Shown in pieces: positions 492-50,832 of a stretch of DNA of 64,000 nucleotides. The number at the start of each line of letters is the position of its first letter. The stretch's first letter is position 1. The translations under genes and the position numbers were made by a program. The notes below the pieces were generated by a model, which saw only the letters and a program-made list of their open reading frames with translations, did not search any database and was not told the DNA's origin. Source of the DNA: Scenedesmus sp. ARA3 (lineage: Eukaryota > Chlorophyta > Chlorophyceae > Sphaeropleales > Scenedesmaceae); NCBI GenBank assembly GCA_004335835.1, contig RWJK01001956.1, positions 99,902-163,901 on the forward strand, given 5' to 3'.

Positions 492-1816
492 AGGGCCGGT
501 TGTCAGCTGCAGGCGTGGCGCCGGTTGCTTCCTGCACAGCTAGCTTGAGAGCATTGCTAAACTGCTGCAGTGAGGCAAAGAGTGGCATCACAGTGGCATA
601 TGTCATGAACAGTTGCTGCTGATCCCCATTTTCCCGCTGCAGCCCGCGCTGCAGCCGCTGCAGCTGCTGCTCCTGCTGCTGCCCACGCTGCCGACTGCTG
701 CTGCTGCTGCTGCTGCCACTGCCCTGTTGACTTGCCGCGTTCGGCGCTTCCGCAGCGGCTCTGCCCGGTGCCAGCGTCTGCACCAGCACCAGCTTAAACG
801 TACTGCACAATGCACATCCCAGCGCAGAGACAGCTGCTGCATCAGACAACAGCTCTGAGAGGCCTCGGGGCCCTAACCTGCTGCTGCTGCCCAGTGCTGT
901 AAGAAACACGTTGTTGCCTTTCAAGCTGAGACTTTGCAGCATCTGCTTGGACCTTGCACATGCCTCCAGCAGCTGGTAGAATGCAACAGGGTGCTTGCGT
1001 GCCAGCTGGCTCAGGAACAAGTCCCGCATTGCCAGCTGCTGCCGCTCTTGGCCGCCAGTGCGGAGGTCTGTAGGGCCGCACACATGTGTTTCTCAGTCAA
1101 ACATGCGGCGCGGCTCAGACAGGCATATGAGCAGCAGCACGGCAAAAACAAGTCCCGCATTGCCAGCTGCTGCCTCTCCTGGCCGTTAGTGCGGAGGTCT
1201 GTAGGGTCAACACCGTGTTTGGTCAATATGTGAGGCGGAATGCATGTGTGCAGCAGCACGGGCTAGGGGCTGACGGCAAGGTTGCTACATGAAGGTGATG
1301 ATGAATGATGAATTGCTGCTGGCGATGAATGTCAAAAGGAGCAGCATGAAGTTCTTAACAGATTCAGAGATCAGCTCGTCTCAAGACATGCTCACCTTGG
1401 GGTGTAGCAGTAAGGCAATGCAGCAGGTTGGATGGCCACATGTTCACATCCTGCTGCAGCTTCACATCAAGCTTGCTGCAGCGAGCAGCCAGAGTCAGGC
1501 CCTGCAGCAGCACCCCGCCCCCTTGCTGCTGCAGCAGCTGCAGCTGCTGCTGCCACTGGCCCCTATCTGCCAGTGCAACCATCTGCAGGCGCAGCAGCAT
1601 CGCGCTTGCACTCAGCAGCTGATTGTCAGCCAGCACTTCCAAGCTGGTCTGCGCTGCTGCACCAGACTCGTCTGTTGTCAGCACTGCTGTGTCAGATGCT
1701 AGCAGCAGCTGCTGCTGCTCGGACTGGCGGCTGTATGCCTGCTGCCAGCGAGCACCAGCAAGCAGCAGCAGATGCATCGACAGCTGCAGAGCAGCGACAG
1801 ACAGTGCGGGTGTGCG

Positions 1817-1853
<37 letters not shown>

Positions 1854-2374
1854 AGCTGGTCCAATGCCTGAATGTGCCTGCAAAGGACTGCCGTCCAGGA
1901 TGACAGCGTCCTGGTCTGCAGAGCGCGGCTGTCCGTTGCGCTAAACTTGTCTGCAGCAGTACGCAGCAGCGGATCTCCTGACAGCAGCTGCACCAGGTGT
2001 GGCTGCGGGTCTGGCAGCAGCAGCAGCTTGTCAGGCTTCCGCCTGCGCAGCAGCTGTACCGGCTGCAATGCCAGTCCCTGCTGCTGCTGCTGGTGCTGCT
2101 GCTGCTGCAATGTCTGACGGTACATCTCAATGCAGCAAGGTGCCAGCATCTGCATAACAAGCTCTGCTGCCACCAGCTGCGCTGCAAAATGTATGGTGGC
2201 TGCTGTGTCCTGCCAGTCACTGCCAGGTTGGACCCCTGAATTGGGGATGCTTTGATGGAGGGTGCAAGAAGCTACTTCAGTTATATTCAAACACAACCCG
2301 TTTGCATCTGCTTGTCTGCTGCTGTCCCTCTCGCTGCTCATGCTGTTGCTGTGTCCTGTTGACTCCATGTTCAG

Positions 2375-2411
<37 letters not shown>

Positions 2412-4262
2412 TCCGACGACCCTCCTGGCAGTGCCCGCATGAGGCCTGCCGCTACTGCGCAGTTCAGCAGCTGCTGCAGCGCCTCCGCTGCCCAGCGCCA
2501 GTTAATGTCTCGTCTGCGAAAGCAAAATGGCTTCACCAGCATTGCTGTGGTGGCACACAGCAGATGCGTTATGTGGTAGACTGGCCCAACCAGAGGCAGC
2601 TGCTGCGCCGCACAGCTGCTGATAGTCTGCCGTAGGAAATCAGGCAACTGCTGTGGCAGACCTGCGAGTGCATTGAGGATATAAGCACACTGAAAAGCAC
2701 CGTCTCGTCGAGGCTGCAAACAACAGCACCAGTTGTTCCAGCGGCAAAGCAGAGGAGCTTTTATGTTTTGGCTACAATACTGTGTGCTCAGTGGCTGCGG
2801 CACACATGTCCTTGGCTACCAAGGCCGTCATATAAGTATGGCGTCCAAAGCTGCTGGCAAAGTAGATCAGATTGGAGCTGCCACACAGCTACGAACTAAG
2901 GTAATACAGCCAATGGATGATGGTGCCATGGACTGCCTCGTAGCCACAGCTGCAAGGCTAGACCTGAGTGCTTACCCGACTGCTGCAGCTGCTCTGCAAT
3001 CGAACTGATCGCCTGTGCACTGGCAGCAGATTTGAACCCCTCACACATGGCACGCAGCAGCATCGTCAGAGCTGCAGTGGCAGGAGACAGCCAAACGGGA
3101 ATAAGTTGGGTTATGTGGATAGGCCAGAAGTGTGCGCATGTGGGCTACCAGGGAGCGTGATGCAGACAACTGTCAAGCACAGTCACATGCAGATCTCAAA
3201 ATATGCACTCACAGTGTGCACTGCGCAGCATTCAACACCGCAAGCAGATGGTTGCCACAAAGGCATGCAGTTGCAGCAGCGGACCTCTTAGACTGCGGCC
3301 AACATCTGCACCATAGCTGGTGGATATGAGACCTGCTGCATGCATGATGTGGTGCAGGCTGCCTTTGCAGGAAGTTTTGAGTTGTTCTCCAATGTGTCCT
3401 CCCCTTTTGAGGCCCCCATTGGCTCCTGAATGGGGTTCCCACTCCTTGGTAGAGTCCTACGTAAGCTGCTTGTTGTAATGTCATGTCACGTAACGTTATG
3501 TTTGTTATGTTCGTTGTCTCACCGTCAGTGCAGGTCCACCACATACCATGGTAGCTGCCTGCTGCCAGTGCTGTGCTCTCAGGCAGGGCAGCTAGGCCAG
3601 GCAAGTCCAGAACCTCCGGCCACTGCTGCAGCCACACCAGCAGCTTGGCGAGCGCTGCTGCTGCTCCTGAAGAGATGATGTCCTGCAAGAGTTCCTGCGT
3701 CAGCTTGGCTGATGTTTTGTCGTCCTGGTGGTGTGAAAAACACGCCACCATCTTCTCCCACCGCAGCTTCGCAATCAGGCTGGCAAGCTGCATGGTTTCT
3801 GCCAGCAGTGCAGCGCGCCTGGGGTTTGGAAGTGCTGCTGGCAGCAGCTGCAGCAGCTTGGCATGGCCTGACTGCTTCCATGTGCGGCTGATTCGCCACG
3901 CTGCAGCAACAGCCCTGTGCAGCTGCAATAAATGAATGGATGTACCCGCAGGAGGATGCATTCTTTGTGAGTGTGTTTGGTGCATTTTGGTGTACTGATG
4001 ACCTCAAAGCCTTGATGATATTTGGAACTGTTAAAATTAAGCTTAATTATGTATGTTGGTGAAGACATGCGATACAGGAGCTGATGCTGTGAGTGATTGC
4101 AAAGGCAGGGGACGTTGGACAGCTGCTGCCAACAGCACCTGCTGCAGATGCTGTGGTGCGTACCTCTTCTTCATACCCTGAATCGCGCACGTCGTTGAGT
4201 TCCTTTACTTCTATCAAGACTGTAAGCTCGTCCTCTGGTCGAGTTCGTGTCTGGTGTCGCAT
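1..4262 (-). CDS. Long unrecognised protein with homopolymer runs (3' end beyond window)
   Basis: I do not recognise this protein. A first exon at 4164-4262 (MRHQTRTRPEDELTVLIEVK..., 33 codons, donor after EEE) joins in phase 0 to an exon at 3547-3922 beginning LHRAVAAAWRISRTWKQSGH. A long coding stretch follows at about 1395-2800 (ALNMESTGHSNSMSSE and many Q/S/A runs). Next is an exon from 1067 downward (DLRTGGQERQQLAMRDLF), then a poly-Ser/Ala tract interrupted by a 50-N gap. A last open stretch to position 1 reads HPDTLVQKHMLEHVIQAFTS. Exon edges between 2800 and 3547 are unresolved. The helical, Ala/Leu/Gln-rich texture resembles algal OPR-type organelle RNA proteins, but no clear repeat or RAP end is visible, so that is only a possibility. 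The intron upstream of the 1067 exon holds a copy of that exon's start. Confidence 0.5.
304..488. repeat. CTG triplet run with 50-N gap
   Basis: Uninterrupted CTG units flank an assembly gap at 382-431. On the gene strand it reads as poly-Ser or poly-Ala inside the unrecognised protein. True length is unknown because of the gap. Confidence 0.95.
1148..1245 (-). repeat. Exon echo in the first gene
   Basis: A diverged direct copy of 1015-1115, about 131 bp upstream in transcription. It repeats the acceptor (CTACAG), the exon start encoding DLRT-GQERQQLAMRDLF, and part of the preceding intron. The AG acceptor of the copy is intact, but the copy runs into a different frame. Confidence 0.8.
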
Positions 4263-7030
4263 GCTGCCTAGGCGCGCGCAAGTGCTACCACCGTGCTGCT
4301 GCTGTCAGCGGTTGCTGCCACATGTAAGTACCACTACACAGCTGTTTGCTACATATATACTCAAAGCACTGTTTATCGCCACCTCGGACAGTCTGCAAGT
4401 GACGCAGAGGAAACCTCTGTTCGTGTCCGCGCTACAACTTCTGCAGGTCGGGTCAGCTGACCCGACTGCCTTTCTCGCCGCGTATGCGACAGCGTTTTGC
4501 CCTGTTTGGATTCATGTTCAAATAACTCTACAAGTTCATCGCCCACTTCAAATACGTGATGTCACGTACACATCGCTTGTTACAAGTAGTTCGTACACAA
4601 GGTGGCTGCATTTCAGAGTTGGCTGTAACAAGCCCAGCAGCTGCAAATCAGAGAGTCTCAACTCCGTATCCCGGACGATGGTTTCCTTGCTTGTGTGCCA
4701 GATATGTCGCATGGGTTCACATGGGCGTTGCCTGTGATGCGTCATCAAATGAAGCCTTCCGGCCCACCACCCACCCCTCCCACCACTGCCAGGGACGTCC
4801 CTGCCCTTTAATGCTCTCCGCAAGTCGAGTGTCCACGGCACATGCTGAGACGCATTCCAGAACCAGCGATTGAATATGAACGTGGTCGAAAGTGTGTTGG
4901 TTGTTGCACTGCAAGAATGCAGCTAACAGCAGCTGGCAAGGTATTCAAGAGCTTCGTCAAAGTCCAGGTGTTCAATACCATATTCTGGTACAATACTATG
5001 GAATAATAATTAAAGCTTTCAAGACAACGTATGAAAGGCATGCACGTGCACAACACACACGCAAAAAGCAACACACGAAAGAATCCGGACAGCTGCGTGC
5101 ACCAGGCAGTGATGTGCATCGAGGCGCAACGTTACCTCTGTAAAACGTAATTCTGACTTCTTCGTGAGCTGTTACGATGAAATAACTGCACGCTGCCTCT
5201 AACAAAGTCAAAACCCGCGTCCTCAAACACCTTTGGCCATTGAACCTGGCGAATACGAAGAACTAGGGGTCTTTATTTGCCCACATGTTGCAGATTCTTG
5301 TTCTCGACATTTTCAGGCGTCTTTGATGGGCAGCTTCGACGTATTCAAGGACTGTTACAGCCCTTCGACGCTCTGCAATGCGGGCTCCTCGAGCGCTCAA
5401 AGTTCAGATATAAATTAGGGAGTCTTCCACTCCGTATCCCGGACGATTGTTTCCTTGCTTGTGTGCGAGGCACGCATGTGTGCAAATGCTGAGCTACTGT
5501 AACAGCTGTTGTTGCGTGGGATGGAGTCCGGCCACCCACCCACCCCTCCCAGCCCCAACTAGGCACTTCATTAACTTTGTTTACATTGACAAGTATCTTT
5601 TCATGACGTGCTACGGGGAAACACCTGCACGTAACCTCTGGCAATTCAAAACCCCACGACCAAGAACACCAGAAGCCATTGAACCTGGCGAAGAGGCAGA
5701 ACTGGACATCTAGAATTGCACATTTGCTGAATCGAACTGTTGGATAAATTACGCGGCAGTGGTTCCGCCCTGATTCGACGTATTCCGAGACTGCCACTGC
5801 TCCACGACGCTCTGCAATGCCTGCGCCTCGCGCGCTCAAAGTTCAGCTATAATTGCGGTTCAAGCTTTGCAACACGCTGGGCTTTCTGACACTGTCACAG
5901 GCAGCATATTTGTCCTGAATCGACGTATTCAAAGACTGTTACTGCCATTTGTCGCTCTGCAATGCCTGCGCCTCGCGCCCTCAAAGTTCAGCTATATTAC
6001 TGGGTTGAGTTTTATATTGCAATGAGCCCTTGTGGCTCGTCGCAGCTTCAGTGGATTCAGAGCTATTTGAGTCGAAAGAGCCCTTGTAACACGAAAAGCA
6101 ACGCTGGCCGGAAGGCCACAGTCTCCGTCCTCATTCTATTCGTCCGGGTAAATTTGCATCTCGACGCAAACCCCTTTGGCCACACGTTCGTTGTCACAGC
6201 ATCAAAGATACCCGCGCAGTTCGAGGCGGAAGACCCAGGTGTAACAGTGTTATTTGGCGCCATATAAGGCCACAGTCTCCGACGATTTTCGTTCCTCTAA
6301 TCGTCCGGGTAAAGCTGCGAGCCCATGCACAAGGATAAAACAAAACAGCATTCGCATGTCCCCGGGGCATGGCCTCAAGGTACAAACCACCACGCGCCTG
6401 TGCCTGCAAGCACATACTGGCTTGCCCAGTAAGCACCATGTCAATTCACGCGGCCAGCGGCTGAGAGCAGCATGCACTTGAAAATACAATACAACACACG
6501 CCCTTGGCAATGCCCCTGCAACACCAGCAACACGGGTCTTCAAGGGTTGCTTGCACAATTTCACTGCTTTGGTGGCAGCGTGCCACCCTTGTTGCAGCAA
6601 TTGACACGATTGTCCTGTGGGGGAGGACAACAGACACACCTTCCTGCTGCACATCAGCTCTGTCAGAAAGGTCTGCCAGAAATAACCAGCTGTCCCAACA
6701 TACAACTGTCAGCTGTGATGCCCAATCTCCATCCCCAATCAACAACCAGCTTCAACAACACGAGGCATATCACCTAGCTGGATAAGCACAGTGCCTGCCG
6801 GCGGTCTAGACCTGGAAGCAAGGCCTTGTGGGCAGCTGCGCAGCAAAGGGCTGCACCCAGCGGCTCCACAGAGCACTTGCAGCAACAGCAGCAGCATCTT
6901 TCACAGCCTGGAACCATGCCTGCTGCTCATCACGCTGCACTGTTTCCAGCGGTCAACCGGACGCCTCATGCAAAAAGCACAGGCCTGCAAGCAGGCCGTT
7001 TGGATTGAACCTTCTGCTGCTCCGACAAAC
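4263..7030. other. Gene-poor region with a decayed repeat array
   Basis: No convincing exon is seen on either strand, and CAG/CTG runs, common elsewhere, are rare here. It contains several related direct repeats (listed separately), which suggests relics of a mobile or satellite-like element. No terminal repeats, reverse transcriptase or transposase reading frame is recognisable. Confidence 0.5.
4636..6320. repeat. Diverged direct-repeat array
   Basis: Related blocks recur. The block CTCCGTATCCCGGACGAT.GTTTCCTTGCTTGTGTG is at about 4657 and 5430. CCACCCACCCCTCCCA is at about 4766 and 5532. GCCATTGAACCTGGCGAA is at about 5236 and 5675. A block running from CGACGTATTC..GACTG to GCTCAAAGTTCAG.TATA is at about 5337, 5778 and 5922. 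A block starting AAGGCCACAGTCTCCG and ending TCGTCCGGGTAAA is at about 6114 and 6266. Spacing for the middle blocks is about 440 bp, with a shorter 145 bp repeat at the end. Divergence is substantial, so the copies are old. Confidence 0.75.
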
Positions 7031-7254
7031 TCAATCCTGCATCTCATCACCTGCTGCTGCTGCTGCTGCTTTCTTGGCTGCTCCCTTCTTCTTGGGGTTT
7101 TTCCGCTTCGAGCTGCTCTTAGCCACCTCCGCCATCTGCTCATCGCCGAATGTCTCTGCTACTGTGTCTGCTACGCGCTCCTCGTGTGCCTGCTTGCGCA
7201 GAGCCTTCTTGGTGCGCTTGCCTGACTGATTCTGCTTGGCAATCTTGTGCTTCT

Positions 7255-7299
<45 letters not shown>

Positions 7300-8192
7300 G
7301 CGGCGGCAGCAGCACAAGAGCCAATGAGGCAGCAGGATATCAGGGCACAGGAGGGGTGATGCACAAAGGCTGTGTGCTGTCTCAGAAAGCTGTAGGGCTT
7401 GCATGAGGCAGTTGCTTCTACGTTGCCTATTACTATCCTACATCTGCGACTGCAATACCAGCCGTGTAAGGTGCCCCATAACCGGGGCTGCCTTTAATTG
7501 GGGCATGAGGTATATGCTGCCCGCAGCTGCAAGCGCTGCCAGCGCACCTCTTGCAGCTTCATTGCCTTCCTCTTCACACGTGCTTTCATCTTCTGCAAGT
7601 GGAAACAAAGTAGGATAAACAATTCACATCTTCTGCATGTGTGGCCAAGTGACATGACTTGCAATGGTGAGCAAGACATGCAGGCCACCTGCAGCAGCAG
7701 CAGCAGCTGCTGCTGCTGCTGCCGTTGATGGTGTTGCTAGTGCAGCAGCGACGCGGTTAATCATGCTTGTAGCTTTAAAGCTAATCCTAGGGTTGAGCAG
7801 TCAAGCCAGCTGTATGCACGACAGACTGCGACACTAACTCCGGCAGACTAGGTCTAGGCTGCTCATCGCAGCAAGGGCAGCGCACCTTCTCTTTATTAAA
7901 GTTTAAATTCAACTTGTTAAAAACCATTGTGTTGCTTGAACCTGGCGTGTAAGGCTTTTGTTGAAGGCACTCAGTGCAGACGGCGAGATGCAGGGCAGCA
8001 GCACGGCTGGATCCCTGCTGTGATAGGTTGGGGTTGTAATTCGGCAAGTTAACAAGTGTGAAGCACCTGGTTACCCTATAAGTGTACAGGGAAGTCCTAT
8101 GTATGTGAAAGCTAGCCAAAGGAACTAACCTGAGAACTGACAGTAACACCAGCAGCTGACGTCACTGACTCGTTGTAGACGTTCAGCACCAT
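7031..8192 (-). CDS. Small basic protein, possibly nucleolar (model uncertain)
   Basis: Candidate exons are 8130-8192 (MVLNVYNESVTSAAGVTVSS), one starting at 8017 (two Cys pairs, CTEC and CPCC, if read to its stop at 7787), 7548-7592 (KMKARVKRKAMKLQE) and about 7034-7256 (KHKIAKQNQSGKRTKKALRK..., ending GDEMQD). A GTGCGC donor after NFNKEK near 7890 would skip the CPCC segment and join the basic exons in phase. Without that splice, the upstream part is a separate 97-aa Cys-containing protein. The lysine/arginine-rich tail suggests RNA or nucleolar binding, but I do not recognise the family. The last acceptor is preceded by a long CTG run. Confidence 0.35.
7255..7300. repeat. CAG/CTG run forming an acceptor tract
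   Basis: About 14 triplets. Read on the minus strand the run is (CTG)n ending in CAG directly before the exon KHKIAKQ, so it appears to serve as the polypyrimidine/acceptor region. Confidence 0.85.
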
Positions 8193-8474
8193 TGTTCACT
8201 CTTCACCATCTTCTGGCGTGTCCTTCAAGGGCTTTAGAGTGCAACAGTCTTTGAAACTTTGTATTCAACACTGCCGATTCGGGCAGCCGGTTCAATTGTT
8301 GACAACAGCGACCTGCCATGCCTGCGTTGGTGTGATTTGTCACGCCTGACGGCAGCGCCGCTACTGACAAGCCCTGGTCAGCAGAGCCCGACAAGACAGC
8401 TGGACAAGACCAATGCTCCACACTCCAAAGGTTACACTGTAGAAATCAACTGATTTTCACTCAGCCTCGCCCGT

Positions 8475-10270
8475 TCACTGCTCATCCACCTTGTTCGGCA
8501 GCGGCTGCCCTTCTGGCACAAACTTCAGCGCTGCTGCGTTGATGCAGTAACGCTTGCCGGTGGGGCGCGGCCCTGCAGCAGATGCGGCGGCAGCATGGGT
8601 GCGCATGGAGTGTCAAAGCAGCAGCCAGCATATTATTTGGTCATTTGAACTGACCACAGGCCAAAGTGCATCGGCAGCAGTTGCCTGCAAGCTTGCATCC
8701 TACACCCGACTGCTGAAGGGTGACCTCACCAACGGTCAACACACACAAGACACATCAACAGGCATGCGCACCCAACAGAAAAAGCTAGCAAATTCCTGCT
8801 CTGCTGACAATGCAAAGCAGCTTCAGGCAGCTAAGCCACAGGCGTGTGTCCTGTTCACCCAGCAACCGCTCACCATCATCAAAGACATGCCCCAAGTGCG
8901 CTCCACTGCAAGCACACAGCAGACACATGACATGCAACCATCAGCATCAGCAGAACACATGATAACTAGGATTGTTTGAACTCACTGCGCTGGCACGCGG
9001 GTATGAATCTCTAGAACCCTGCGCTTGCTTGAGGAAAGGCTGGGCATGCATGCACGGCAGAGCGTGCAGAGTCAGCATACATAACTCATGTGGAGGCTGT
9101 GCTGCCTCAACCCCCGTTCTGCAAATTGGCAATTTGTAAACAATTTGCTGCACGGCATCGCCAGGCAAAACAGCACTGCAGCGCATGCTGTTCCACTCAG
9201 CTCTGCCAGGCTGGCATGCAGACGCATCGCAATCTGCATCTGTCTGCAAACACACCTCTTGGCGTCAATGACCTCCACACGTGGCATCCAGGGGATGCTG
9301 CGGTCAACAACCTGCAGCAACACAGCATCGTAACATGTCTTTGAAAACCAGCATGCAGCTATTGACGCTGCTGTCCCACCAGTGTGCACCACGGCCCAAC
9401 TGCTGCTGCATGCAAGTGCGAGCTGGATGTCAACACAACCAACTGGGTGTCAGCAGCTGTGTTGGCAACGCTGATTGTGCTGCGCCGCGCAGCGGCTGCT
9501 AATGATGCCGCACTGCACAGCTCTTTGTCTACACAGCTTGCAAGCAATCCATGTTGCCCGGTACCCACCTCAATCACATGGTCCTTGTCAATGGGTGCGT
9601 AGAAGCTGGGCCAGCCTGTAACAGCAGCAGCAGCAGCAGCGGACACACAATGTATCTGAGTCAACTCATGTGGTGAGGTGAAACGCAGCTATCACAACCT
9701 GCTGTGTCCTGTCGTCACATGGGCAGCAAGCTGTGCACTGCCATACCCGGTTGTCTGCAAGCCCGGATGCCTGCAGCAGCAGCTGGCTCACCTGTGCCGC
9801 TGTTGAACTTTGTGTCGCTGCTGAACAGCGGCAGCCCGCCAATGGCTGACACGTAGGTGCCCTGCACACACAGGCAAAGCGCCACACCAAGCTGACTCAG
9901 CAAAGCACAGCACGGGTGCATCACATGGGTGTGGCTGATGTGGCAGTGTCCCCAGGAGGCAGGCTCACACCTGCTGCTCTGCTAGGCGCCCAACCATGGC
10001 TCTATGCAAGCACCAGAGCGTAAGCCAAAGCCATAAGCGCTGCCCCTCACGCAGTTACCACCCTGCTGATATGTTGACATACTCGCCAGCCACTGGATAT
10101 GCTGCTGCTGCTGCTGCTTCTGCCGCTGAATGCTGCTGCTGCCGCTGTTGTTGCTGCTGCTGCTGCTGCCGCCGCCGCTGCCTCACCTTCTGCTTGTTGT
10201 CCCAGGGCAGGCCGTCAGCAGTGGTGCCTGTGAAGGCGCGCTCAGTGCCCTGCTCCAGCGTGACGTACCT

Positions 10271-10303
<33 letters not shown>

Positions 10304-11236
10304 CATATAATGCCGGTCCGCTACAAGTAGTTCCCTGTCGTCAAGTGGCAAAGATCTAATTTACACCCCTCAACCTTCCCACTTGCATACACACGTGGAC
10401 AACACACTGCTGCCACTGATGCCTCTCCATATGCCCCCCTCGAGACGCTGCTGCCATTGCTGCCGCTGCTGCCACTCCACCCCTCACCACACTCACCGCT
10501 GGAAGTCGTTGAGCTTTGCTGCCTCAGCCTGCCGCTGCTCTGCTGTCAGCGGCGTCACATCAAAGCCCAGCTTGGACACCTTACGGCTGCCAGACCCTGC
10601 AGAGTTATGTGTCATGCGGGCAGGGCAGAAGCTGTGTCAAACCGGCGGCATTTGCCAAGGGGCCAAGCATGCATGCGAATGGACAGTCATGCCAGTGCTG
10701 GGCTGGTGTACATACTGCCTGCAGGCATCGCAGCAGCACGGCTACTTGCTGCCAGCGCTGCATGCACTGCTGCTGAGCTCAATTGATACAAGCAGCCATT
10801 GAGACAGTAGTGCCATGGCATGGTCGTTACAGACTACAGCGTACGGCGGTGGCGCCTGCATGTGGCGTGGTAGCACTTGCAGGGACAAGGCACGTCGCTG
10901 GTTGACATCGCCTGAGCTAAGCAGCATCACCACGCCTTATGCACACCAGTTGCTCTGCAAAAAGCGATACACGTACGGTAGCAGCCGCATGCAGGCAATC
11001 TACAAAGTGGAGCTGCCCTCACCAGCACTTGGTGCCCAGCCCTCCCTGCCACCCTCTGCTCCCTTCGATGCTGTTGCGCCCATCTCTGCTGACTTGGCGC
11101 CGAAAAGGTTGCCGAACAAGCTGTAAGAACGCACGCAACGAGCACGGCTGACGGCCCTGGGAGCGATTACGGCTGCTGCCTTGCCTGCAGAGAAGCTGTG
11201 CATGCACAGCAGCAGCATGCACACCACACACCACAC
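8475..11236 (-). CDS. MSRB: Methionine-R-sulfoxide reductase B, plastid-type
   Basis: MsrB reduces methionine-R-sulfoxide in proteins, repairing oxidative damage. Eight exons splice in frame: 11023-11203 (or from ATG at 11236), 10497-10596, 10187-10268, 9792-9861, 9569-9615, 9256-9311, 8874-8905 and 8475-8572, giving about 221 aa from the ATG at 11203. Visible family motifs in order are TLEQGTERAFTGTTADGLPW, GTYVSAIGGLPLFSSDTKF, NSGTGWPSFYAPIDKDHVIE, DRSIPWMPRVEVIDAK, SGAHLGHVFDDG and GPRPTGKRYCINAAALKFVP. The last holds the catalytic Cys (RYC). Both CxxC zinc pairs of zinc-type MsrBs are absent (VSAIGG and IDAKSG instead), so this is a zinc-less form. The N-terminus (SFSAGKAAAVIAPRAVSRAR) looks like an organelle transit peptide. 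One exon is only 32 nt. It is transcribed divergently from the OPR gene. Confidence 0.92.
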
Positions 11237-11668
11237 AGTCAGTGACCCAGACGGCTAGCTGATGAAGGCATGTCCTCGTGCTTTTGAAAAGCATTTGTGT
11301 ACCTGTGAGCCTGCATGGATCACACCACTAGCGCCCGAAAGCGGCGATCGGGCACTTGGCAAGTATCCTTGCAGAAAGTTCGACTACACGAAAGACTGCG
11401 AAGAAGACACAAAGTAATCCTAAAACGTTCGTCCCAATGCGCTAATATATGACGCTTGCAAGCCCGCCAGTACGCACTAGACATGACTAAACACCACACA
11501 CTGCACTGCACCTGTCAGAGGTGATGCATACAGCCACAAACTGTGCCCCTAGTTCGTCCATTTGTATAGCAGCCAAACTAATTGTACAGTATGGTGCGTT
11601 GCTCAAGGTGCTGATGTGTGCAAGAAGACACGGCCGCAAGTCGGGACTAGCCGTGAACAGCAGTTTAA
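11237..11668. promoter_or_regulatory. Divergent intergenic region between MSRB and the OPR gene
   Basis: About 430 bp separates the two start regions, so it probably contains both promoters. I see no clear TATA box or named element. Confidence 0.45.
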
Positions 11669-13044
11669 ATGAACCGAAGTGTTTGTGACAGATTATATGG
11701 ACTAAATGGCAGCACTTCAAACAAGACAGCTGCCGGCAGGCATGTGCAGCAGCACAGCAGGAGACAGCCCACCACCACGCAGTGCTCACTGCAGCAGCTG
11801 CAGACGGCAGGAGGCAGGTCCGCTACACGCACGCAGGTGAGGAGAAGCAACTATCTACTGCATGTTAAGAGCCAGCAAGCAGCAGCAGCACCGGTGCAGC
11901 TCCAGCAGCAGCAGCAGCCTGTCACCCAGGCCACCGCGGGGCTTCGCTGCTGTCCCCTTCACCCCATGGCATGCTGTAGAAGCTGCAACACACCCTTCGT
12001 AGATGCTTTCTACCAGGTGCCACTACAACCAACCTCAACCTGCATCGCATGCTGACATGCAGCCTAATCATACCTTGCTTGCCTTGCCCTTGTTCCACCT
12101 GCTGCTCACGCCCTCTCCAGGATGCTGCATCGCCATACAGCAGCCTCCGGCAACAGCAACAGCAGCAGCAGCAGCTGCAGCGCCAGATAGCACGGGCCTG
12201 GCCGCGGCCGCAGCAGGCCGTAGCCAAGGCCATGAGCTTGCGGCTGAAGCGCGCCGACAGCACCGCTGACGTGCTGGGCGTCATTGCGGAGCACGGCCAG
12301 CGCTTCAATGAGGTGGGCCTGGGGCATAAGCCTTTTGTGTTTTCTGTTGCTGCAGCTGGATGGTGTTTTTCCTGTGTGTGGGTGAACGCAATTTTGTTTG
12401 ACATGCTGAGGTGGTCCAGCCAGCAGCAGCAGGATGTGCTGTGCGTTGCGCTGCCCTGTGCAAGGTGTTGGTGTGGCTATGCCAAATTGCAGCATTTGGT
12501 ATGCACATCGTCTGTTGCATGTCATGCGGGCTCAGCATGGCCTGCTGACGCAGCAAGTTCTTTGCCACCCACACGCTGCCGCACAACGCACCAATGCTCT
12601 TCTGCGCAGGTCAACACTGCGCTTCCCAGCTGGCACAGCAATCTGTCTGCCCCGCATGCTCTGCCGCAGCATGCATGGAAAAATTGACCTTGTCCACGTG
12701 TCCGCCTGTCACTGGCCTTTCGCATGTTGCCCCTTATTTGGGGTAAAAGCAGCCGGATCACCCAGCCATGTCAACGTGTCTGCCTGTCTGTCTGCGCAGG
12801 TCAACACCGCCCTGGCCTTCTCCCAGCTTGCCAGGCAGCTGCGCTTTGACAGCAGCAGCAGCAGAGCAGCAGCGCTGCAGCACGCCAGCTACGCACAGCT
12901 GCTGCTGCTGGCAGAGCAGCAGCTGGCGGGCCTCAACCCCACTAAGCTCGCGATGATCCTTACCTCACTGGCTTGGATGAGCAGCAGCAGCAGCTGCGAT
13001 GCAGAGGCTCCTGTTGTGGAACAGCAGCAGCACGGCGCGCAGAC

Positions 13045-13093
<49 letters not shown>

Positions 13094-13386
13094 GTGCTAG
13101 TCACTCAGCAACCCATCTGCATCAGTAGTGGGGTCGCGCTGCAGGCAGTTGCGCCCGCCCGGCTGCTGCAGCTGCTGGCACGGCGGCTGCAGCAGCAGCT
13201 GCATACAGCTGAGCCAGAGGAGATCTGCCACTGCCTGTGGGCCCTAGCAAAGCTGCAGCAGCTGCACAGCTCTGCTGTTGCAGCTTTGCTAGATGCAGCA
13301 ACAGAGCATAGCTTGCGTGTGGGCTGGGTGCACCTGCTGACTGCGAAGCCGCTGAGCTCGCTGCTGTGGGTGCATGCGCAGCTGCT

Positions 13387-13418
<32 letters not shown>

Positions 13419-13449
13419 TGGGGTTGCAGCAGCAGGAGGATGCCACTCC

Positions 13450-13485
<36 letters not shown>

Positions 13486-13607
13486 CTTGCCGGCGCTGCT
13501 GCAGGCTGTGATGCATGAGCTTGCCCAGCCAGGCTTCCTGGGCACATGGACTCCTCAGGAGCTGAGTATGCTGCTGTGGAGCTGTGCAGCATTCAAGCTG
13601 CAGATCG

Positions 13608-13652
<45 letters not shown>

Positions 13653-14377
13653 GGGTGCTGCCGATGTTGCCAGCATCTGTTGTTGAGGAGGTGTGCATGC
13701 TTGCGGTGCAGCAGGTGGTGCGATTCACCCCTCAGGGTATCTCCAACATGTGCCTGGCTGCCTCAAAGCTGCTGGAGGCAACAGCAGCAAGCCAGCAGCA
13801 GCAGCAGCTGGCTGCAGTACAACCAGCAGCAAGCGTGGGTCAGCAGCAGGTGACGGTGCAGCCCAGCGTGCAACGTGCCTTGCAGCAGCTGTTTGAGGTG
13901 TTCACTGCTGCAGCTGCAGCACAGCTGCATTACTACAAGCCTCAAGAAGTTGCAAACCTCTGGTCAGCATGTGCACGGCTGCATCAGCAGCAGCAGCAGC
14001 AGCAGCAGAGGTTCACTGCATTCACTGCTGCTGTCAGTCACTATGTGCTGAACCACAGCCACCAGCTAAACCCCAGGGATGTGTTTGAGCTGCTGGCAGG
14101 GTTTGTGCAGCTCAAAAGCCCGGTTGAGCCGCCGGTGCTGCATGCCCTGCTGCATCGGCTGGGTCAGGTTTCAGCGCAGCTTCAACCCTACGAGCTGACA
14201 GCAGCCGCCTGGAGCCTGGTCAAACTGGCAGAAGCACAGGAGCAGCAGCAGCAGCTGGGTGGGGGCCTTGTGCAACCTTTGCAGCAGCAGCTGCATAGCA
14301 GGTGCCTAGCAGCAGCACAGGAGCTGCTGGATCAAATTGCCTCAAAGTTGGAGGCAGGACATGACACAGCAACGGAT

Positions 14378-14409
<32 letters not shown>

Positions 14410-15227
14410 GCAGCAGGTGTTGTCAGCCTCAGGAGCCAAGGCGGTGGTGCTGCTGCTGTGGGCAGTAGCAGGAAGTGGCTACCTTGATGAAGAATTGCAG
14501 CAGCAGCAGCGGCGGCAGCGCTTGCCAGCTGTATTGCTGACAGAGGTGCAGCGGCAAGTTGACACCTGCAGCGGTGGGGCGCTGCTGCAGCTGCTGGCGA
14601 CACTTACCAGGCTGCAGCCAGTACTGCTTCAGCGGCAGCAGTACGCGCAGCAGCTGCAGCACGTGTGTCAGCTGGCATCAGCGCGGCTGCTGCCGCTGCT
14701 GCAGCAGCTACCTGCTCAGCAATTGGTGCTTGCTGCTTGGTCCCTTCAGAAGCTGGCACCTGCCTCATGTGGCAGGCAAGCAGTTGCGGCAACAGCTGAT
14801 GCAGCAGTGAGCATGGCCCAAGACACACCTGGTGACACAGCTGGTGGCGTAACTAGTGACACTACAAGTGACAGCTGCAGTTACACTGAGGGCGCAGCAG
14901 CAGCAGCAACAGCAAAATTCACAATGTTCACTCTAGCGGAGCTTCAGCAGCGTCAGCAGCTGGCCAGCCTGCCTGCCGATGCTGCTGCTGCCCTGCTGTG
15001 GTGCTGCACTGCTGCCAGAGTGACAGTAGACGCTGCAGTGCTGCTGCCGCTGCTAGGGGCTGCTGAGCAGCAGCTACCGCATATGTCTGTGCGAGAGCTG
15101 ACGCAGCTGCTGCAGGCACTTGCACACGTGCATCAGCAGCAGCAGCAAGCCGTGGTGAGGCTGCGCTCGCGCTTGATCAGCCAGGCAGCTGACAGGTTGC
15201 TGCAGCAGCTGCAGCACTTCCTGCTGC

Positions 15228-15271
<44 letters not shown>

Positions 15272-26489: not shown

Positions 26490-26527
<38 letters not shown>

Positions 26528-26587: not shown

Positions 26588-29041
26588 ATGAGGCAGAAGC
26601 CTAACACCTCCGCAACTACAGCAACGCCACTGGCTCTGCTGCTGCTGCTTGCTCTGCTGTCTGGCACTGCCAACTCCCAAGAATGGCAGCTGGGCCGGGC
26701 CACCTACTTTGGTGCCCCGGAATCCTTCTCTGCCACCTTTGACCCCTACAGAGGCAAAGGCTCCTTTGGGGTGCTGTCAGGAGCCAGCTGCGGCTTTACT
26801 AATAGTGATGACAGCATCCCCTTCCCAAGAGATCAAGTGGCCGCACTTGCCGACTCAAGGCCAGACTATCCAGGTGAGTCGATATTGCTTCATTACTGCT
26901 CAGATTCACTCAGGCCAGCAAGAACATGTGCAAGCCATGAGTAAGCGCACGCACAGCGCATAGCCAACAGATTGATTGAATTGCTTGGTGTGCAGGGGCT
27001 TTGTAGCAGGCCGCAGCAGACCATCCTGTGTGGTATGCAGGCAGTACCCAACACTGCAAAGTCGCACACCCGCAGCACTGCCTAGCAGCAGCCTGTGCTA
27101 TCTGCGCCAGCCAGTTACTGGCTAGCTGGCCGGCTCATTGGGTATTGTGTGGCAACCTGCTGGGCTCTGATGTGCCTGCTGCAGGCAGCTGTGGGCGCTG
27201 CTATGCTGTGAGGTGCAAGGAGGGCCTGGTGCTGGGTGAGCAGCAGATGTGTCGAGCGTGTTGCACATTCAAGTTGCAGGCCCCTGCTTGCAATTTGAAG
27301 CACGGTACAAGCAGAATACCCAGCACGCAGTGATGGGTCCGCCCTGGCAGCACACCTTTTCCTTACAGCAACAGCAGCTAGTCCAACAAGCCTTCTGCAC
27401 CGCTGCACCTATGCTGCCGCCGCTGCTGCTGCTGCTGCTTTACCCCACGTCCTTGCCACCACCAGACAACGACGGCAACCCGCGCCGCATTGACAGCTTT
27501 TTCTACCTTTCAAACGTCACCACCACCCTGCCAGACAGCAGCGGGCGGCTGTGGCCCGGCAACACGGCGGAGCCGCAGGGCCTGCTGTACACGCGCTGCC
27601 AGACGCCAGCCAAGGAGCTGACTGTGCGCGTGATGGACACCTGCCCCTGCAAGCAGGTGCGTGTGTGCATCATTGGATGCAGTGCGCTGTGCCGACAGCA
27701 GAGAGCAGGGCAGTAGGTGGGGAGTCGTGCAGCGCACCGTAACAGTTTTTGAACCAGGACATGAGACCCTGGAATGTTAAGGAGGCGCGTTGAGAGCAAG
27801 AGTGAGTCTGTACACATCGCTAACACAGCTCCACTGTTGTGTGCCTGCCGTGCTGCCAGGTGCTGCCTGATGGTGCGCCGGGGGTGGCGCCTGGTGGCGA
27901 GATCAGGACCCAGAGCTGGTGCTGCCCCTCAAGCATTGGTGAGGGGACGCTGCATCTGATGAGCCATGGCTTTGTCACATGTTACATGTTACGTGTTACA
28001 TGTTAGAGCATGCTGCTGATGAAGTGCTCATGAGGCTGGGCAGGTTGCGTGCATTGCGTTGAACACCGGAGCAGCACAGTGAGTCTTTGTGAGCAGAAGA
28101 TGCTGTGCAGCTGCGTTGCAGTGCCATTCCAGCTGCTTGCTACATGCTTTTGATTGTGCCCTGCAGGCTTGGGGCACTTACTAACCTGTCCTTCTGAGCC
28201 TTCGAACAACCTGTGCACCCGCTGTTCGGCATCTGCATGTCTCACACGGCTGCTTGCTGCATGCTTTCCATTGTGCCTTGCAGGCCTGGGCCACTTTGAC
28301 CTGTCCTTCTGGGCTTTTGAGCAGCTGGCGCACCCGCTGTATGGCATCCAGATGCTCGAGTACCGGCCAGTGGACTGCGACACAGGGGCGCCCGTCCCCA
28401 GCAACTACATCAGCAAGACAGACATCTACCAGGGGGGCACCAAGGCGGGCTGGAACTGGTTCCCGTACGGCGACTCGTATAGCAAATATGCGGTGCCGGG
28501 TGAGTGCTGCCGCTGACATGATGCCAGCAGAAAAGCAGTCAACATCCAGTTGCCACGTGACAGGAACTGGACCCGTACGGCGACTCATACAGCAAGTAAG
28601 CAGTGCCAGGTGAGATGCACAGCTGGCATGGTGCCAGCACAAAAGCAGTCACTGATTAGTCAGTTGCCACGAGACAGGAACTGGTTGCGGTACGGCGACT
28701 CGTACAGCAAGTATGCAGTGCCAGGTGAGACGCTCAGCTGACATGGTGCCAGCAGGGCAGCAGTGGCAATTTGCTTTTTGCAGAATAACACAAAACAGTT
28801 GTAAAGATGGACAGTCTGGCATGAAATTGGCAAAGCTGCGCACCTTCAAGCATTGCACAGCTGTGTTATAGTGACTCGCACAGCACATATGCGGTGCCAG
28901 GTGAAATGCTTAGCTGGGGTGATGTCAGCGGTACAGCAGTAGTGTGACAGGATCGTGTGGAATGTCTGCAAGGAGCTGGCCCCCTGGCTGCATGTGGCCT
29001 CCTTGCCACCTGTGATGGAGTTGCCTCCAGTGAGACTTACC

Positions 29042-29101
<60 letters not shown>

Positions 29102-29151
29102 NNNNNNNNNNNNNNNNNNNNNNNNNNNNNNNNNNNNNNNNNNNNNNNNNN

Positions 29152-29209
<58 letters not shown>

Positions 29210-32671: not shown

Positions 32672-33302
32672 GCTGAGCGCTGTCTGTGTGCTTTGGACTG
32701 GTGATCAATACAAACTCTCGATTAATAGTAGTGGATGCTGGGAAGAGGCGACAGCAGCAACACACACGAGAGTTTGCAAGCAGCTCGGCCGAGATGCAGC
32801 AGTACGAGAGAGCAGGAAGCTTCAAAGAAACCAAGATAAATGATCGAAATGTCTACATGCTTATGTTGCAACCAGATTGGTTGAAACTGCTGAGTGACAT
32901 GAAGGCAGCAGGGCTCAAGGCGATGAGCACATGCCACTGGCATGAAGCCAGTCCCTCAACACAGAAGGCTGGTATGCAAACGAAGCACACCATTTTCGAC
33001 ATCTGTTTACGATAACCGAGGCACTTGCAAGTTTCATTGCAGCAGAGCAATACTCGCAGTACACATCCTGCACAGCATGTCCAACTGCAAGGTGGTTACC
33101 CCAGTGTACACTCTTACGTATCTCCTGACATGCTGCAACACAAAAGATGCAAATTGTACTGCTCAGTAGATATTCACAGCAGTCCAGTTCGCACACATTG
33201 CCCAGCTGGTTGGATGGCAACATTGGCCACAGTGCTTCAGGCGCCAAAGCCAACATGCCACACAGCACGCCTCACTCACACACTATGCCTGCATCACAAC
33301 CC
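32672..33302. other. Promoter side of PBC1 and 3' flank of the F-box/LRR gene
   Basis: No exon recognised. The PBC1 promoter must lie in its lower-coordinate part, but no specific element is clear. Confidence 0.4.
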
Positions 33303-34366
33303 CTACCAGAGCCGCTGGGGTTCACCAAAGCTCAGATCTCGCGGCAGGTCCATGCCCAGCTGCCGCGCCTCCTCAACTGCCTTCAGCACCCACCGCTGAG
33401 TAGCCTCTGGCAGCAGCAGCCGCACGGCCGGCCCCCCACTCAACGCACCCAGCACACTCTGTAGCTCATACGGCGTTAACAGCAGATCTGTTGCATAACG
33501 AGGAAGCTCCAGCACCAGCAGCTGCAGCTGCTTTAGCACTGCAAGGCTCATCAAGCCTGCTGCGGCAGTGCTACGGGAGTCGTCAAACACCAGGCGCAGA
33601 ATCTTGAGCTGCTGTGGACCTTGCCTTGCTAGCACAGACAGCTCTATGCAGACATCCAAGTTCATTGACAGCTGCTCAAGGGATTGCAGCTTTGCTAGGG
33701 CTCTAATGGCTGCAAGGCGCTCCGGCAGCGGCGGAGGCACCATTGTCGGCATGCTCTCGTAATGGCCAACCACACCGTCATCACTGTCTTCTTCGCTGTC
33801 GCTATCTGGCACTTCCGCAAAGCCCTCACTTGCGTCTAGGCGCCGCAGCATGGGGCAGTGCTGGCAGAGGCTGCAGAAGAGTGCAGGAGGCCAGGGCGCG
33901 AGCTGCTTGACTGCCTCCAGGTTGGGGAAGGCCTGTTGCGCAAGGTATGTGCAACACAGTGCAAGCAAGTGCATGGTTTGACATACGAGGCGTTTGTGTA
34001 GCTGTTTAGATTTGCACTTAACATGGCCATATGAGAGGCAGTATTGGCAGGACTTGTGTGCTGTGTCGTGGCTTTGTCGAGCTCTGCATTTTGCATGCTG
34101 CCGGCAGCACATGGAGATGTGCGCAAGTACACCTGTGTGAGCAGTGTCATCATTTGACAGCGGCTGTACAATCCTGCCTGCACAAGCGCTGGGATTAGAA
34201 GGCCAACATGGCAGCACGAGCAACTCCATCCTATACTCAGCAGAGCACACCTTGACAACCTACCTCAAATGGAATGGGCCCCGCCCCATTGAGCAGCCGT
34301 ACAGAACTGCAGGCAACACCACTTCCAGCTGCTATGGCGCTGCCCGCATCTGCTGCATCAGCCCCC

Positions 34367-34404
<38 letters not shown>

Positions 34405-36302: not shown

Positions 36303-37196
36303 GGTGTGAAACCGTCTCGAATGAATCTGAATTCACACAGATGTCTCTTTGCTATCAATGGCGTGAAATTCAAAACGTTGACACGGACGATCGAGACAGC
36401 TAGCATACGACAGTGGGGCAGAATCAGGCTCTCAGTCTGGCATGCCGATCGCCGGAAATTTTGTGCACAGCTTTAAGGGCAACCGTCGTTCCTGTATGGT
36501 GGTAGCAATGCGGTGTTGGGTGCACGCACTCGGCACAACACAGCATAACAGCACACAGTAGCACCGCAGGTGACAACCCAACTCATTTACACTAGCCAGC
36601 AATGCCCTCGCTGTCCGAGTTCAGGAGCCATGCAGCACTTAATATTTTAGTCAAGATCACTTTGTCCTTGGACCTCTAGCCATATGCATCAAGCCTTCGC
36701 CATCAGAAGCTAGCACGGACCACAGCACACACAGCATTGCGCTTCAGCCCTGTTACACAGCAGGGCCATGCAGTCAGCTGCACCTGACACGATGCATGCA
36801 CAAGTATTATGGCAGGTCATCAGCCAGCAGCGGTGTGCACATTCAAGGCTCAACTATGTTGCACCATGTGCACGCCTCGCTATACATATATGCACACGCG
36901 GTGCTGTCATGCCGCAGAACCTTGCCAGCCATCCCCGTTATGCTTTGGGATGCCTACAATATTGCACAGCAAGCCCAGGGTGCATCCTTCAATGCAAAGG
37001 CACATCATGCTCGGCATAGTTTGCCTATGAAGATTCATACCAGCAGCCGCTCCAGGTTGGCTAGCAACAACAGCTGTGTGAGGCGATCGCCGCCTGCCGT
37101 GCTTCTCATAGACAACACGTGCCTCGGCTAGCAGCGCACGTAACACCCAGGTATATGTGCAGCTCATGCTGTCGTCAGCACCCGCATCTCACCCGC
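36303..37196. other. Intergenic region between MCM4 and the F-box/LRR gene
   Basis: Contains the MCM4 3' flank and the F-box/LRR promoter region. I see no exon or named regulatory element. Confidence 0.4.
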
Positions 37197-48287
<11,091 letters not shown>

Positions 48288-49209
48288 GGCTACTGATGTA
48301 GCTGTTTGATTATCGCCTATGCTTAGCAGTGCGTGCAAGTTATGGCTGGATCACCCGCTCGCAACTTGAACTTGAGCTGCTACTTTTTCAAGGAGCTCGG
48401 CCACAAGAAGACGTGTATCACGATCAAATAAATACGTAAGTTTGCAAATACTGCGATCGCCGAACCTTTGCGATGGAAGCCACGCAAGGAAGCACACAGG
48501 TAAAGTAGTGTGCTGAGTAAGGCTCTCAACAAATCAGCCTACAAGCATCCAAAACAACGTAAAGCAAATGTCAATCAGCGGCCGTGGATGATGGCTGCCA
48601 CGCAAGTTTTGGCGGGACCGCGAAAATGTTTTTGAAACAGGGCTAACACATCACCGCCCGTTTGCCTGGAGGTGCCTGGATAACAGTGCGCAGGTGCTCG
48701 GAAGTGATTTAATAAGGTATTGATAAAGTTATTTTAGCACGGATACGCAACTGGGTGACCTTCGACCTTATGACCTCTGCACTGCAGCTGAGCTGCCAAG
48801 TGGCTGGACTGAACTGTATCAGAGTAGCACTCCTGGGTGGGCTCGTTGTGAAGCACTGCTGGCATTGTCCCAGTGGCTGATCTGAATAAGACATTGCATG
48901 GGATGCAATGTATGGCATGCAACGTGAAGGGCAATGCTAGCTCCTGTGCGATATGTGTTCACTCCAGTCTCATTGCTGCAAGCACTTGGCGGGAAGTCCA
49001 AGCGCTCCTGTCAAACAAGGGTCTTTCTTCCAACCAAGTGTGTTACTCAGTACAGCGTTCCCCAGGTCAGCTATGTAGTAGCAGCGTTTTCACCAGGTCA
49101 GCTATGTACTAGCACATGCAGCATCAGTAAGACAAGTGCCTGCAGGCATTCAGGCATGCAGCAATGAGCTCTCAGCTGCGGCACACCACAGTGTCCTGTC
49201 ACGTGCATA
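48288..49209. other. MCM4 promoter region and 3' flank of the HA-domain gene
   Basis: No exon seen. It contains E2F-like motifs (separate entry) and a GCATGTACTAGC-type region downstream of the HA gene. Confidence 0.45.
48607..48626. promoter_or_regulatory. Paired E2F-like sites upstream of MCM4
   Basis: TTTTGGCGGGACCGCGAAAA contains TTTGGCGGGA on one strand and TTTTCGCGG on the other, both matching the E2F/DP consensus (TTTSSCGS). It lies about 320 bp upstream of the MCM4 ATG. MCM genes are classic E2F targets in plants and animals. A third TTGGCGGGAA occurs at about 48986. Confidence 0.6.
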
Positions 49210-49331
49210 CTACTGTTGATCAAAGCCTTGTGCCTGCCGCTGCACCTGCTGCTGCGCTGCCAGCCACTTCTCCTGCCGTGTCTTCTGGCGTGCTTTCTTC
49301 CCTCTGCAGTTGCGCTGGTAGAACAGCGTGC

Positions 49332-49384
<53 letters not shown>

Positions 49385-49600
49385 ACAACAAGCACCTGCT
49401 CTGACTGCTGGAGCTCTGCACTTGCCTCGGATCTCTGGCAAGCCTGCTGCTGCTGCTGTTGATGCTGCTGCTGCAGCACAGGCGCGGCCACGTGCTGTTC
49501 TTGCTGCATGTGCTGGCTGCTAGTCTGCAAGCTGCTCAGGCGCACGCCCGCTGCTCGATCCTGATGCAGCTGATCCAACACTTGAGGCTGCCACAGAGGA

Positions 49601-49636
<36 letters not shown>

Positions 49637-50832
49637 AACAGCTGCGCTGCCTCTCCCTGCCCTCCGCCCTGCACACTGCTCAGCAGCGCCAGCCGCCGAC
49701 TCACCACCAGCTGCTGCTGCCGCTCAACCTCCCGCTGCTGCTGCCACTCCTGCCGCCGCAGCCACTGCTGCTGCTGCGCAGCAGCCGCATCTGCATGCTT
49801 CCACTTCTTACGCAGCTTGCGCCTCTCGGGCCCATTCAGGGCCTGCAGCTGCGCGGTGCGGTGCACTAGGCGCTTTGGCAGCCGCAGCGTCACCTGCAGC
49901 AGCTGCAGCATGGCCACCTTTTGGCCGCCGAGCTTGCGCTTGGCCAGCAGCCGGCCCTGCTTGCTCAGCCACCTGGGAGGCACCACAGCATGTAAAAGGA
50001 CGAAGTAAATGCACAGTTTCGCACCTTCAAGCGATGCTGAAACAGCATGCGCGTGCAGCATATGATGTGGTGGACAGGCACAGCAGCCAGCGTTTGCTTT
50101 CAGTGCTGGCCAACAACACGGTGTCACAGCACCACAAGGGCCTCTTGCCAATTTCTTAGAGCCATGCAGCAGCAAGCATGTACTAGCGGCTGCTACCCCT
50201 GGCTGGTTTGCAGGCAGCCTACAATACTTGCCTGGCTACTTTGTCGATGCAGCCGACATTAACTGCCCTACACGCACCTCCCAATTGCTGCACAGTCCCC
50301 TTGGCTGCTGCCGCTACTGCTGCCGCTGGCGTTGCGCAGCAGCCTGCCGGTGCCGTGCAGCAGCCTGTAGCGGCGCAGCTGGTGGTACAGGTGGTGCCAG
50401 CGCGCCTCCTGGTCTGGCAGCTCCCACTCAAACTGCAAGCTGTTCAGCCTGCACACAATGCAGCACAGCACAGCAGCTTGTGCAGAGAGTTGACAGTGAA
50501 GATGCAGCGAATGCAATGCTCTGCTGCTGCAGTGGCAGCTCCCACTCAAACTGCAAGCTGTTCAGCATGCACATGGTGCAGCACAGCACAGCAGCACATG
50601 CAGAGTATAAGTAAACACCATACACATTGACGCAAAGGTTTGCTGCTGCTTTTGCTGCTGCTGTTTGTTCAGCGCCAGCCCCAAACCGGGTGCACCTGAG
50701 TGCGCCAATGAAGTCAAACTGTGCACGGCATGTGACACACGAACAGGTACATCTTTGTGTCGAGCATTGATGGCAACAGTGGCCACACACCCGCCCAAAT
50801 GACGTGCTGGTCAATTGCTTCCAAGTTATGTG

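What the first reader, a model, noticed from the sequence alone, without database searches (positions are those of the whole stretch)
1010..50590. Recurrent 'exon echoes': introns carry diverged copies of adjacent exon edges with their splice sites
Seen directly in at least six genes (first gene, OPR, orphan secreted exon, expansin-like, MCM4, HA protein). A 35-100 bp block spanning an exon edge and its splice site is repeated one to five times within the neighbouring intron, usually 95-260 bp away. Copies range from near-identical to heavily decayed, and they affect both acceptor and donor sides. Tandem duplication across AG|GT is a known route to new introns or alternative exons, but so many events in 64 kb suggests an ongoing process in this genome. 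I know of no established name for such a pattern. Possible outcomes are decoy splice sites, mutually exclusive exons, or simply a local-duplication mutational bias.
Basis: partly seen in the sequence, partly recalled or inferred. Interest (0 to 1): 0.88.

Follow-up and report, generated by a model that had tools for sequence, protein, structure and literature searches.

The report
Exon edges copied into own introns
In this green alga many introns carry decaying copies of the exon edge beside them, apparently left by repeated local duplications about 100-150 bases long, so introns would grow outward from their own splice sites.

Summary
By protein similarity the genome belongs to the Tetradesmus obliquus complex. 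In 26 stretches (308,798 bp) my own gene finder gave 661 exon edges; 89 have a copy of the edge in the adjoining intron. At the same score, random flanks match in 2 of 658 and reverse-complemented own flanks in 0 of 658. Donor edges are echoed downstream, acceptor edges upstream, with few exceptions. In 60 of 89 the nearest copy is 94-148 bp away; a smaller second mode lies at 200-260 bp. The intron flank is still related in 46 of 89 to 57 of 89, which points to tandem duplication across the splice site followed by decay. The copies lack a second splice site, and T. obliquus MCM4 and valyl-tRNA synthetase proteins omit them. Two reading frames from other sources carry such copies in a proteasome gene, which argues against an artefact of this assembly; no long reads or RNA could be examined. 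The closest known case is one potato gene. Unresolved: the size limit, the excess at exon edges, clustering in some genes, and copies that differ only synonymously.

The parts
1016..1067 (-). acceptor edge of predicted exon 313-1067 (first gene), the used copy
1147..1198 (-). echo of that edge, 131 bp upstream in the intron
28167..28233 (+). echo of that acceptor edge
28452..28499 (+). donor edge of exon 28284-28499
28563..28730 (+). tandem echoes of the donor edge (units about 110-115 bp apart, flanking intron also repeated)
28873..28904 (+). decayed further echo of the donor edge
37916..37969 (-). MCM4 donor edge of exon 37914-38088
37794..37847 (-). its echo (122 bp)
37676..37699 (-). its second echo (263 bp)
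39752..39777 (-). MCM4 donor edge of exon 39752-39844
39652..39677 (-). its echo (100 bp)
40641..40698 (-). MCM4 donor edge of exon 40641-40819
40510..40567 (-). its echo (131 bp)
41190..41237 (-). MCM4 acceptor edge of exon 41123-41238
41315..41362 (-). its echo (125 bp)
41453..41509 (-). its second echo
42755..42789 (-). MCM4 donor edge of exon 42755-42878
42621..42655 (-). its echo (134 bp)
43149..43187 (-). MCM4 acceptor edge of exon 43031-43187
43265..43303 (-). its echo (116 bp), identical over 40 nt, spacer unlike
45307..45396 (-). MCM4 donor edge of exon 45307-45504
45057..45146 (-). its first echo (250 bp): 8 synonymous and 1 replacement codon differences in 30 codons
44785..44874 (-). 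its second echo (522 bp): 7 synonymous differences and no replacement in 30 codons
44673..44716 (-). its third echo
42956..43004 (-). decayed copy of the same edge in a different intron, about 1.7 kb from the nearest echo
45471..45504 (-). MCM4 acceptor edge of exon 45307-45504
45594..45627 (-). its echo (123 bp)
45720..45754 (-). its second echo (246 bp)
50533..50566 (-). its echo (118 bp)

Best explanation
Units of about 100-150 bp are repeatedly tandem-duplicated at many places in this genome. When a unit spans an exon-intron border, splicing can keep using the copy that is joined to the rest of the exon (the first donor or the last acceptor), so the protein is unchanged and the extra copy becomes intron. 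The used copy then stays under selection while the extra copy and both intron parts drift; intron parts collect changes and indels in both copies and become unlike first, leaving an island made of exon edge plus splice consensus. Further rounds add copies at about 120-bp steps and lengthen the intron from its ends. Shown: the copies, their side, spacing, frequency in the sample, residual intron homology in half or more, lack of a second splice site, and absence from T. obliquus proteins for two genes. Inferred: the order of events, neutral decay, that splicing ignores the copies, and that introns grow by it. The cause of the unit size is unknown.
For: Copies lie almost only beside their own edge (wrong-side intron 5 of 380). 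Repeats outside predicted exons share the spacing (25 of 54 pairs at 100-149 bp, some of them echo against echo). Flanking intron is homologous in 46 of 89 at the 95% level of other pairs and 57 of 89 at z>=2 against plain shuffles, a weaker control, from near-identical to background. Copies of one array in several cases share the same interior breakpoint (seen by eye). With CpG-prone sites left out, 4-fold/0-fold divergence between exon and copy is 1.85 (95% 1.14-2.86), near the 2 expected if the exon is constrained and the copy is not; between copies it is 1.23 (0.64-2.72). T. obliquus MCM4 (all eight edges) and valyl-tRNA synthetase (one echo) have each edge peptide once only. Reading frames P0241 and P0284 carry two and three copies of a proteasome exon edge 55-56 residues apart.
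Against: Without the CpG filter the ratio is 3.31 (2.62-4.25), above 2, and 6 of 38 longer, diverged pairs differ only synonymously. Third-position divergence is the same whether or not the intron is still related (0.179 vs 0.170), although second positions do rise (0.038 to 0.072); plain ageing should raise both. Edge-spanning repeats exceed non-coding ones about 5.8-fold over random placement (111:54 against 0.217:0.608; pairs of one array counted apart), more than longer visibility obviously explains. In 32 of 89 pairs no intron homology is seen (z<2).
Confidence: 0.67

Rival explanations
1. Assembly artefact: reads or contigs from a second haplotype or strain were built into introns of a collapsed short-read assembly, so the echoes are orthologous exon edges.
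For: Nearest-echo spacing thins out sharply above about 148 bp, like a read length. The assembly looks short-read: triplet-repeat runs beside the two 50-N gaps stop at 57-59 bp. Relatives are reported as diploid or double-sized (PMC7955037 passages; PMC5552973). Exon similarity with unlike introns and synonymous-rich differences fit diverged orthologues.
Against: Only one MCM4 locus was found in the assembly; the hits on other contigs have 40-68% identity. In the only two introns that hold both types, donor echoes come before acceptor echoes, the reverse of a linearised haplotype bubble. Arrays have three or more mutually different, partly decayed copies, with residual homology between spacers. 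ENA- and JGI-derived frames with a different protein sequence show such copies.
Confidence: 0.14
2. The copies are not left to drift: gene conversion with the used exon edge, or some use of their coding sequence, keeps exon edge and splice consensus alike while the introns diverge.
For: Purely synonymous long copies (6 of 38), third-position divergence independent of intron divergence, identical islands beside unlike spacers, GT/AG mostly intact.
Against: The CpG-filtered ratios fit neutral copies. Identical runs are no longer than in shuffled mismatch orders (20.4 vs 20.0 over 77 copies). Stops, frameshift gaps and lost GT or AG occur. Spacing modulo 3 is flat (50, 44, 43).
Confidence: 0.13
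3. The echoes are alternative or mutually exclusive exons.
For: Splice consensus is kept, and my gene finder calls some of them as exons.
Against: No opposite splice signal at the interior end clearly above control; T. obliquus MCM4 and valyl-tRNA synthetase lack them.
Confidence: 0.04

Closest known systems
Tandem duplication across an intron-exon border in the potato RdRp gene (PMC4974935; passages incl. abstract read)
   Same: A duplication that crosses intron 1 and exon 2 and carries the splice signals with it.
   Different: One gene, and the product is a new intron; here about one edge in seven is affected in the sample and the copies seem to stay inside the old intron.
Intron gain by tandem duplication of an exonic AGGT segment (Rogers 1989, Hellsten et al. 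2011, as told in PMC4974935; originals not read)
   Same: Short local tandem duplication near splice signals.
   Different: There the duplicated segment is exonic and creates GT and AG; here the unit spans an existing border.
Tandem exon duplication with mutually exclusive splicing (recalled, no paper read)
   Same: Duplicated coding sequence next to its source.
   Different: Whole exons with both splice sites; here partial exons with one.
Introners (PMC9860276, passages read)
   Same: Mass change of intron content, also in algae; nucleosome-scale effects are discussed.
   Different: Introners are dispersed mobile families; echoes lie beside their source.

Membership tests
[quoted passage not shown]
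   Spacing and residual intron homology, (homology not seen in 32 of 89)
[quoted passage not shown]
   T. obliquus MCM4 and valyl-tRNA synthetase proteins hold each edge peptide once; no RNA data
Mutually exclusive exons | copy has both an acceptor and a donor | tested here: not met
   28% vs 21% and 13% vs 17% in control
Introners | many near-identical copies in unrelated genes | tested here: not met
   No repeat of over 60 bp beyond 3 kb within the window; an exact 26-nt word of the expansin-like exon edge occurs once in 87 Mb; random flanks give no match at score 40
Assembly duplication | absent from long reads and other assemblies | not testable with these tools
   Indirect evidence only:

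The most novel reading that the evidence does not exclude
A size-limited duplication process (units about 94-148 bp, with a second mode at 200-260 bp), biased towards exon-intron borders and towards certain genes and present in more than one organism, makes introns grow outward from their own splice sites; it may be set by nucleosomes or by events tied to splicing, and could be a steady source of raw material for new introns and splice-site shifts.
Probability: 0.22. Interest if true: 0.85.

Novelty: new variant of a known kind. Interest (0 to 1): 0.62.

Why it matters
Intron gain and growth by duplication across splice sites is argued, in the papers I saw, from single cases. A genome in which roughly one exon edge in seven of the sample still shows such an event, in all states of decay, would allow the rate, unit size, breakpoint rules and splicing outcome to be measured directly. 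It also warns annotators: a gene finder readily calls the echoes as exons.

Tried and rejected
Codon constraint on the echoes: at first it looked strong (59% synonymous against 24% in a null; echo against echo 54%, and 50% on the larger set), but that null ignored synonymous change in the used exon and CpG mutability; with CpG-prone sites removed the excess is within error, on few sites (44 of 390 and 105 of 1721 differ). I keep it as a rival because of the purely synonymous pairs.

Haplotype bubble laid out in line: set aside because of the fixed short spacing and the order of echoes, which only two introns could show (the looser list pairs edges across several introns). Triplet-repeat hairpins as the trigger: rejected, tracts in 14 of 89 spacers against 88 of 541 control intron ends. 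Alternative exons. Mobile element. Survivorship alone (edge copies are visible longer): the share of edge repeats does not rise steadily with divergence (edge:non-coding 20:15, 45:9, 30:22, 16:8 from high to low identity). Selection on echoes through recombination load: considered and set aside on scaling grounds, not computed. Rfam on the window: no match at the gathering scores. The rRNA search for the species name failed twice at the machine.

Limits: gene models come from my own HMM; no RNA-seq, no long reads, no DNA of related strains. The sample is 0.35% of the genome: the window and L002-L026 (L001, fetched around a window match, was left out). L018-L022 adjoin two stretches already fetched, and L023-L026 were taken beside two stretches already known to be rich in echoes, so 89 of 661 is somewhat high. 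In one search, 112 edges were positive before 23 were dropped because their 'exon' was itself an echo of a longer exon. re-aligned 11 chosen pairs; for three of them (L004, L024, and the L026 acceptor) and one row each of L014 and L021 the re-alignment matched the sequence to itself, and two rows of the MCM4 edge hit the same echo; these rows were ignored.
Full report
What was checked. The window is part of an 87.27-Mb assembly in 1567 contigs. Its MCM4 matches a T. obliquus MCM4 at 98%, and my valyl-tRNA synthetase model from another contig matches a T. obliquus protein encoded on a 5.6-Mb contig at 92% over 92% of the model, echo included, so the genome appears to belong to the T. obliquus complex; the strain was not identified. 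None of the assemblies named in the texts and passages I saw has this size (PMC5255914, PMC5552973 and PMC7291106 read whole; PMC7955037, PMC7590803 and PMC12571836 passages).

The pattern in the window. A masked self-comparison gives direct repeats mostly 100-134 bp apart, one imperfect palindrome as the only inverted pair, and no copy of over 60 bp at more than 3 kb. Twelve of 109 tested edges have echoes: in the first gene, the expansin-like gene, MCM4 and the gene at 50.4 kb. MCM4 has eight such edges, one of them with three echoes. The gene at 11.6-17.1 kb shows none and the secreted-protein exon only a marginal one.

Beyond the window. I trained a two-strand HMM gene finder and extended it to 26 stretches, 308,798 bp. 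With simple repeats masked, 45 of 496 edge tests on 248 introns of the first 22 stretches scored 40 or more, against none in 496 random, 496 reversed and 496 reverse-complemented comparisons, 1 of 246 for exon interior and 5 of 380 for the wrong-side intron. On the larger set 112 of 658 edges reach 34 before filtering, random flanks 2, reverse-complemented flanks 0; after dropping 23 exons that are themselves echoes, 89 of 661 edges remain, with 135 copies. About 24% of predicted introns adjoin such an edge (84 of 346). The sample is partly chosen next to rich stretches, see the limits in Tried and rejected.

Anatomy. The similarity covers 27-80 nt of exon (10th-90th percentile, capped at 90) and the splice consensus, then falls: 0.88 to 0.36 beyond position +5 of donors, and over 0.63 to about 0.4-0.5 upstream of acceptors (45 pairs). 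GT is kept in 23 of 27 and AG in 16 of 18. The nearest copy is 94-148 bp away in 60 of 89, with a second mode at 200-260. Spacing modulo 3 is flat. Only two introns hold both types inside; in both the donor echo lies on the donor side and the acceptor echoes on the acceptor side. Some genes are hot: the dispersion over 46 genes is 102.7 against a maximum of 79.3 in 1000 shuffles; an unnamed gene on L004 (10 of 38 edges), valyl-tRNA synthetase (10 of 34), a gene on L021 that looks like a kinase by eye (10 of 24) and the model with the proteasome ATPase on L023 (9 of 20) lead, while nine gene models with 10 or more edges have none.

Origin. Intron flanks of exon and copy remain related in 46 of 89 pairs by comparison with other pairs and in 57 of 89 by plain shuffles (z>=2), in a continuum from identical to background. 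Copies in several arrays share interior breakpoints (by eye). Repeats outside predicted exons have the same spacing (25 of 54 at 100-149 bp, some of them echo against echo). This fits tandem duplication of 100-150 bp units followed by decay, rather than insertion of bare exon edges; for 32 of 89 pairs the intron gives no support. Edge-spanning repeats are over-represented about 5.8-fold relative to non-coding ones under random placement. Longer visibility of edge copies will explain part of that, but I could not show that it explains all.

Are the copies drifting or kept? Differences are concentrated at third positions (7.2, 6.2, 18.4%) and 4-fold/0-fold divergence is 3.31 (2.62-4.25). If only the exon is constrained, at most about 2 is expected. 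CpG contexts differ far more often and are commoner at third positions; without CpG-prone sites the ratio is 1.85 (1.14-2.86), and between copies 1.23 (0.64-2.72). Neutral copies are therefore sufficient on average, but six long pairs with 5-8 synonymous and no replacement differences, one of MCM4's among them, are more than I would expect, and third-position divergence does not follow intron divergence. Gene conversion or some constraint on a subset stays open.

Function. The interior end of the echoes has no splice signal clearly above control, so they are not complete exons. The T. obliquus MCM4 (P0001, all eight edges) and valyl-tRNA synthetase (P0121, one echo) hold each edge peptide once, with no second match near it in score, although my gene finder had included some echoes. 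How those two proteins were annotated is not known to me. Whether echo splice sites are used now and then cannot be told without RNA.

Is it an assembly artefact? The thinning above 148 bp and the short-read look of the assembly are warnings. Against it: one MCM4 locus only, several mutually different and decaying copies per array, the order of echoes in two introns, and two reading frames in the protein database that appear to read through an intron of proteasome genes with a different protein sequence: P0241 (source ENA, 6.1-kb contig) has two and P0284 (source JGI, 1.7-kb contig) three copies of the edge REHAPSIIFMDEVDSIGSAR, 55-56 residues apart, spacers alike. That an exon begins there is inferred from other listed frames in which unrelated residues precede the same point. 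These were 2 clear cases among the 120 listed frames; P0329 (score 40) and P0322 (34) lie just above the control maximum of 32 and are weak, and P0292, an insect protein, has an adjacent duplication of another sort. I could not fetch their DNA, and their organisms are not named.

Comparison with what is known. Tandem duplication across an intron-exon border is described for one potato gene, where it made a new intron (PMC4974935); the AGGT model concerns exonic segments (same source). Seven literature searches on the phenomenon (listings and abstract starts seen) showed no report of such copies on a genome scale in the open-access library; three more were on the species. That is a limited search. 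I therefore call it a new variant of a known kind.

Noticed in passing
52364-52547: Imperfect palindrome (84% over about 184-190 nt, arms meeting), possibly a foldback or MITE-like element.
   Followed up: no
4645-5996: Stretch with about 80-bp direct repeats (82-86% identical, 145-767 bp apart), outside the exon-edge pattern.
   Followed up: no
43391-43660: 15-bp unit repeated 18 times without a mismatch, running into a 640-N gap inside a predicted MCM4 intron.
   Followed up: no
382-431 and 29102-29151: Two 50-N gaps, each flanked by 59 and 57 bp of pure triplet repeat: a sign of a short-read assembly that stops at runs of about 60 bp.
   Followed up: partly
55391-55511 and 62766-62871: Perfect or nearly perfect short tandem repeats (24 bp x5, 35 bp x3).
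   Followed up: no
L023 about 2193-2570 (-): By eye, the proteasome ATPase exon edge has two decayed upstream copies here, at the same edge as in the frames P0241 and P0284.
   Followed up: partly
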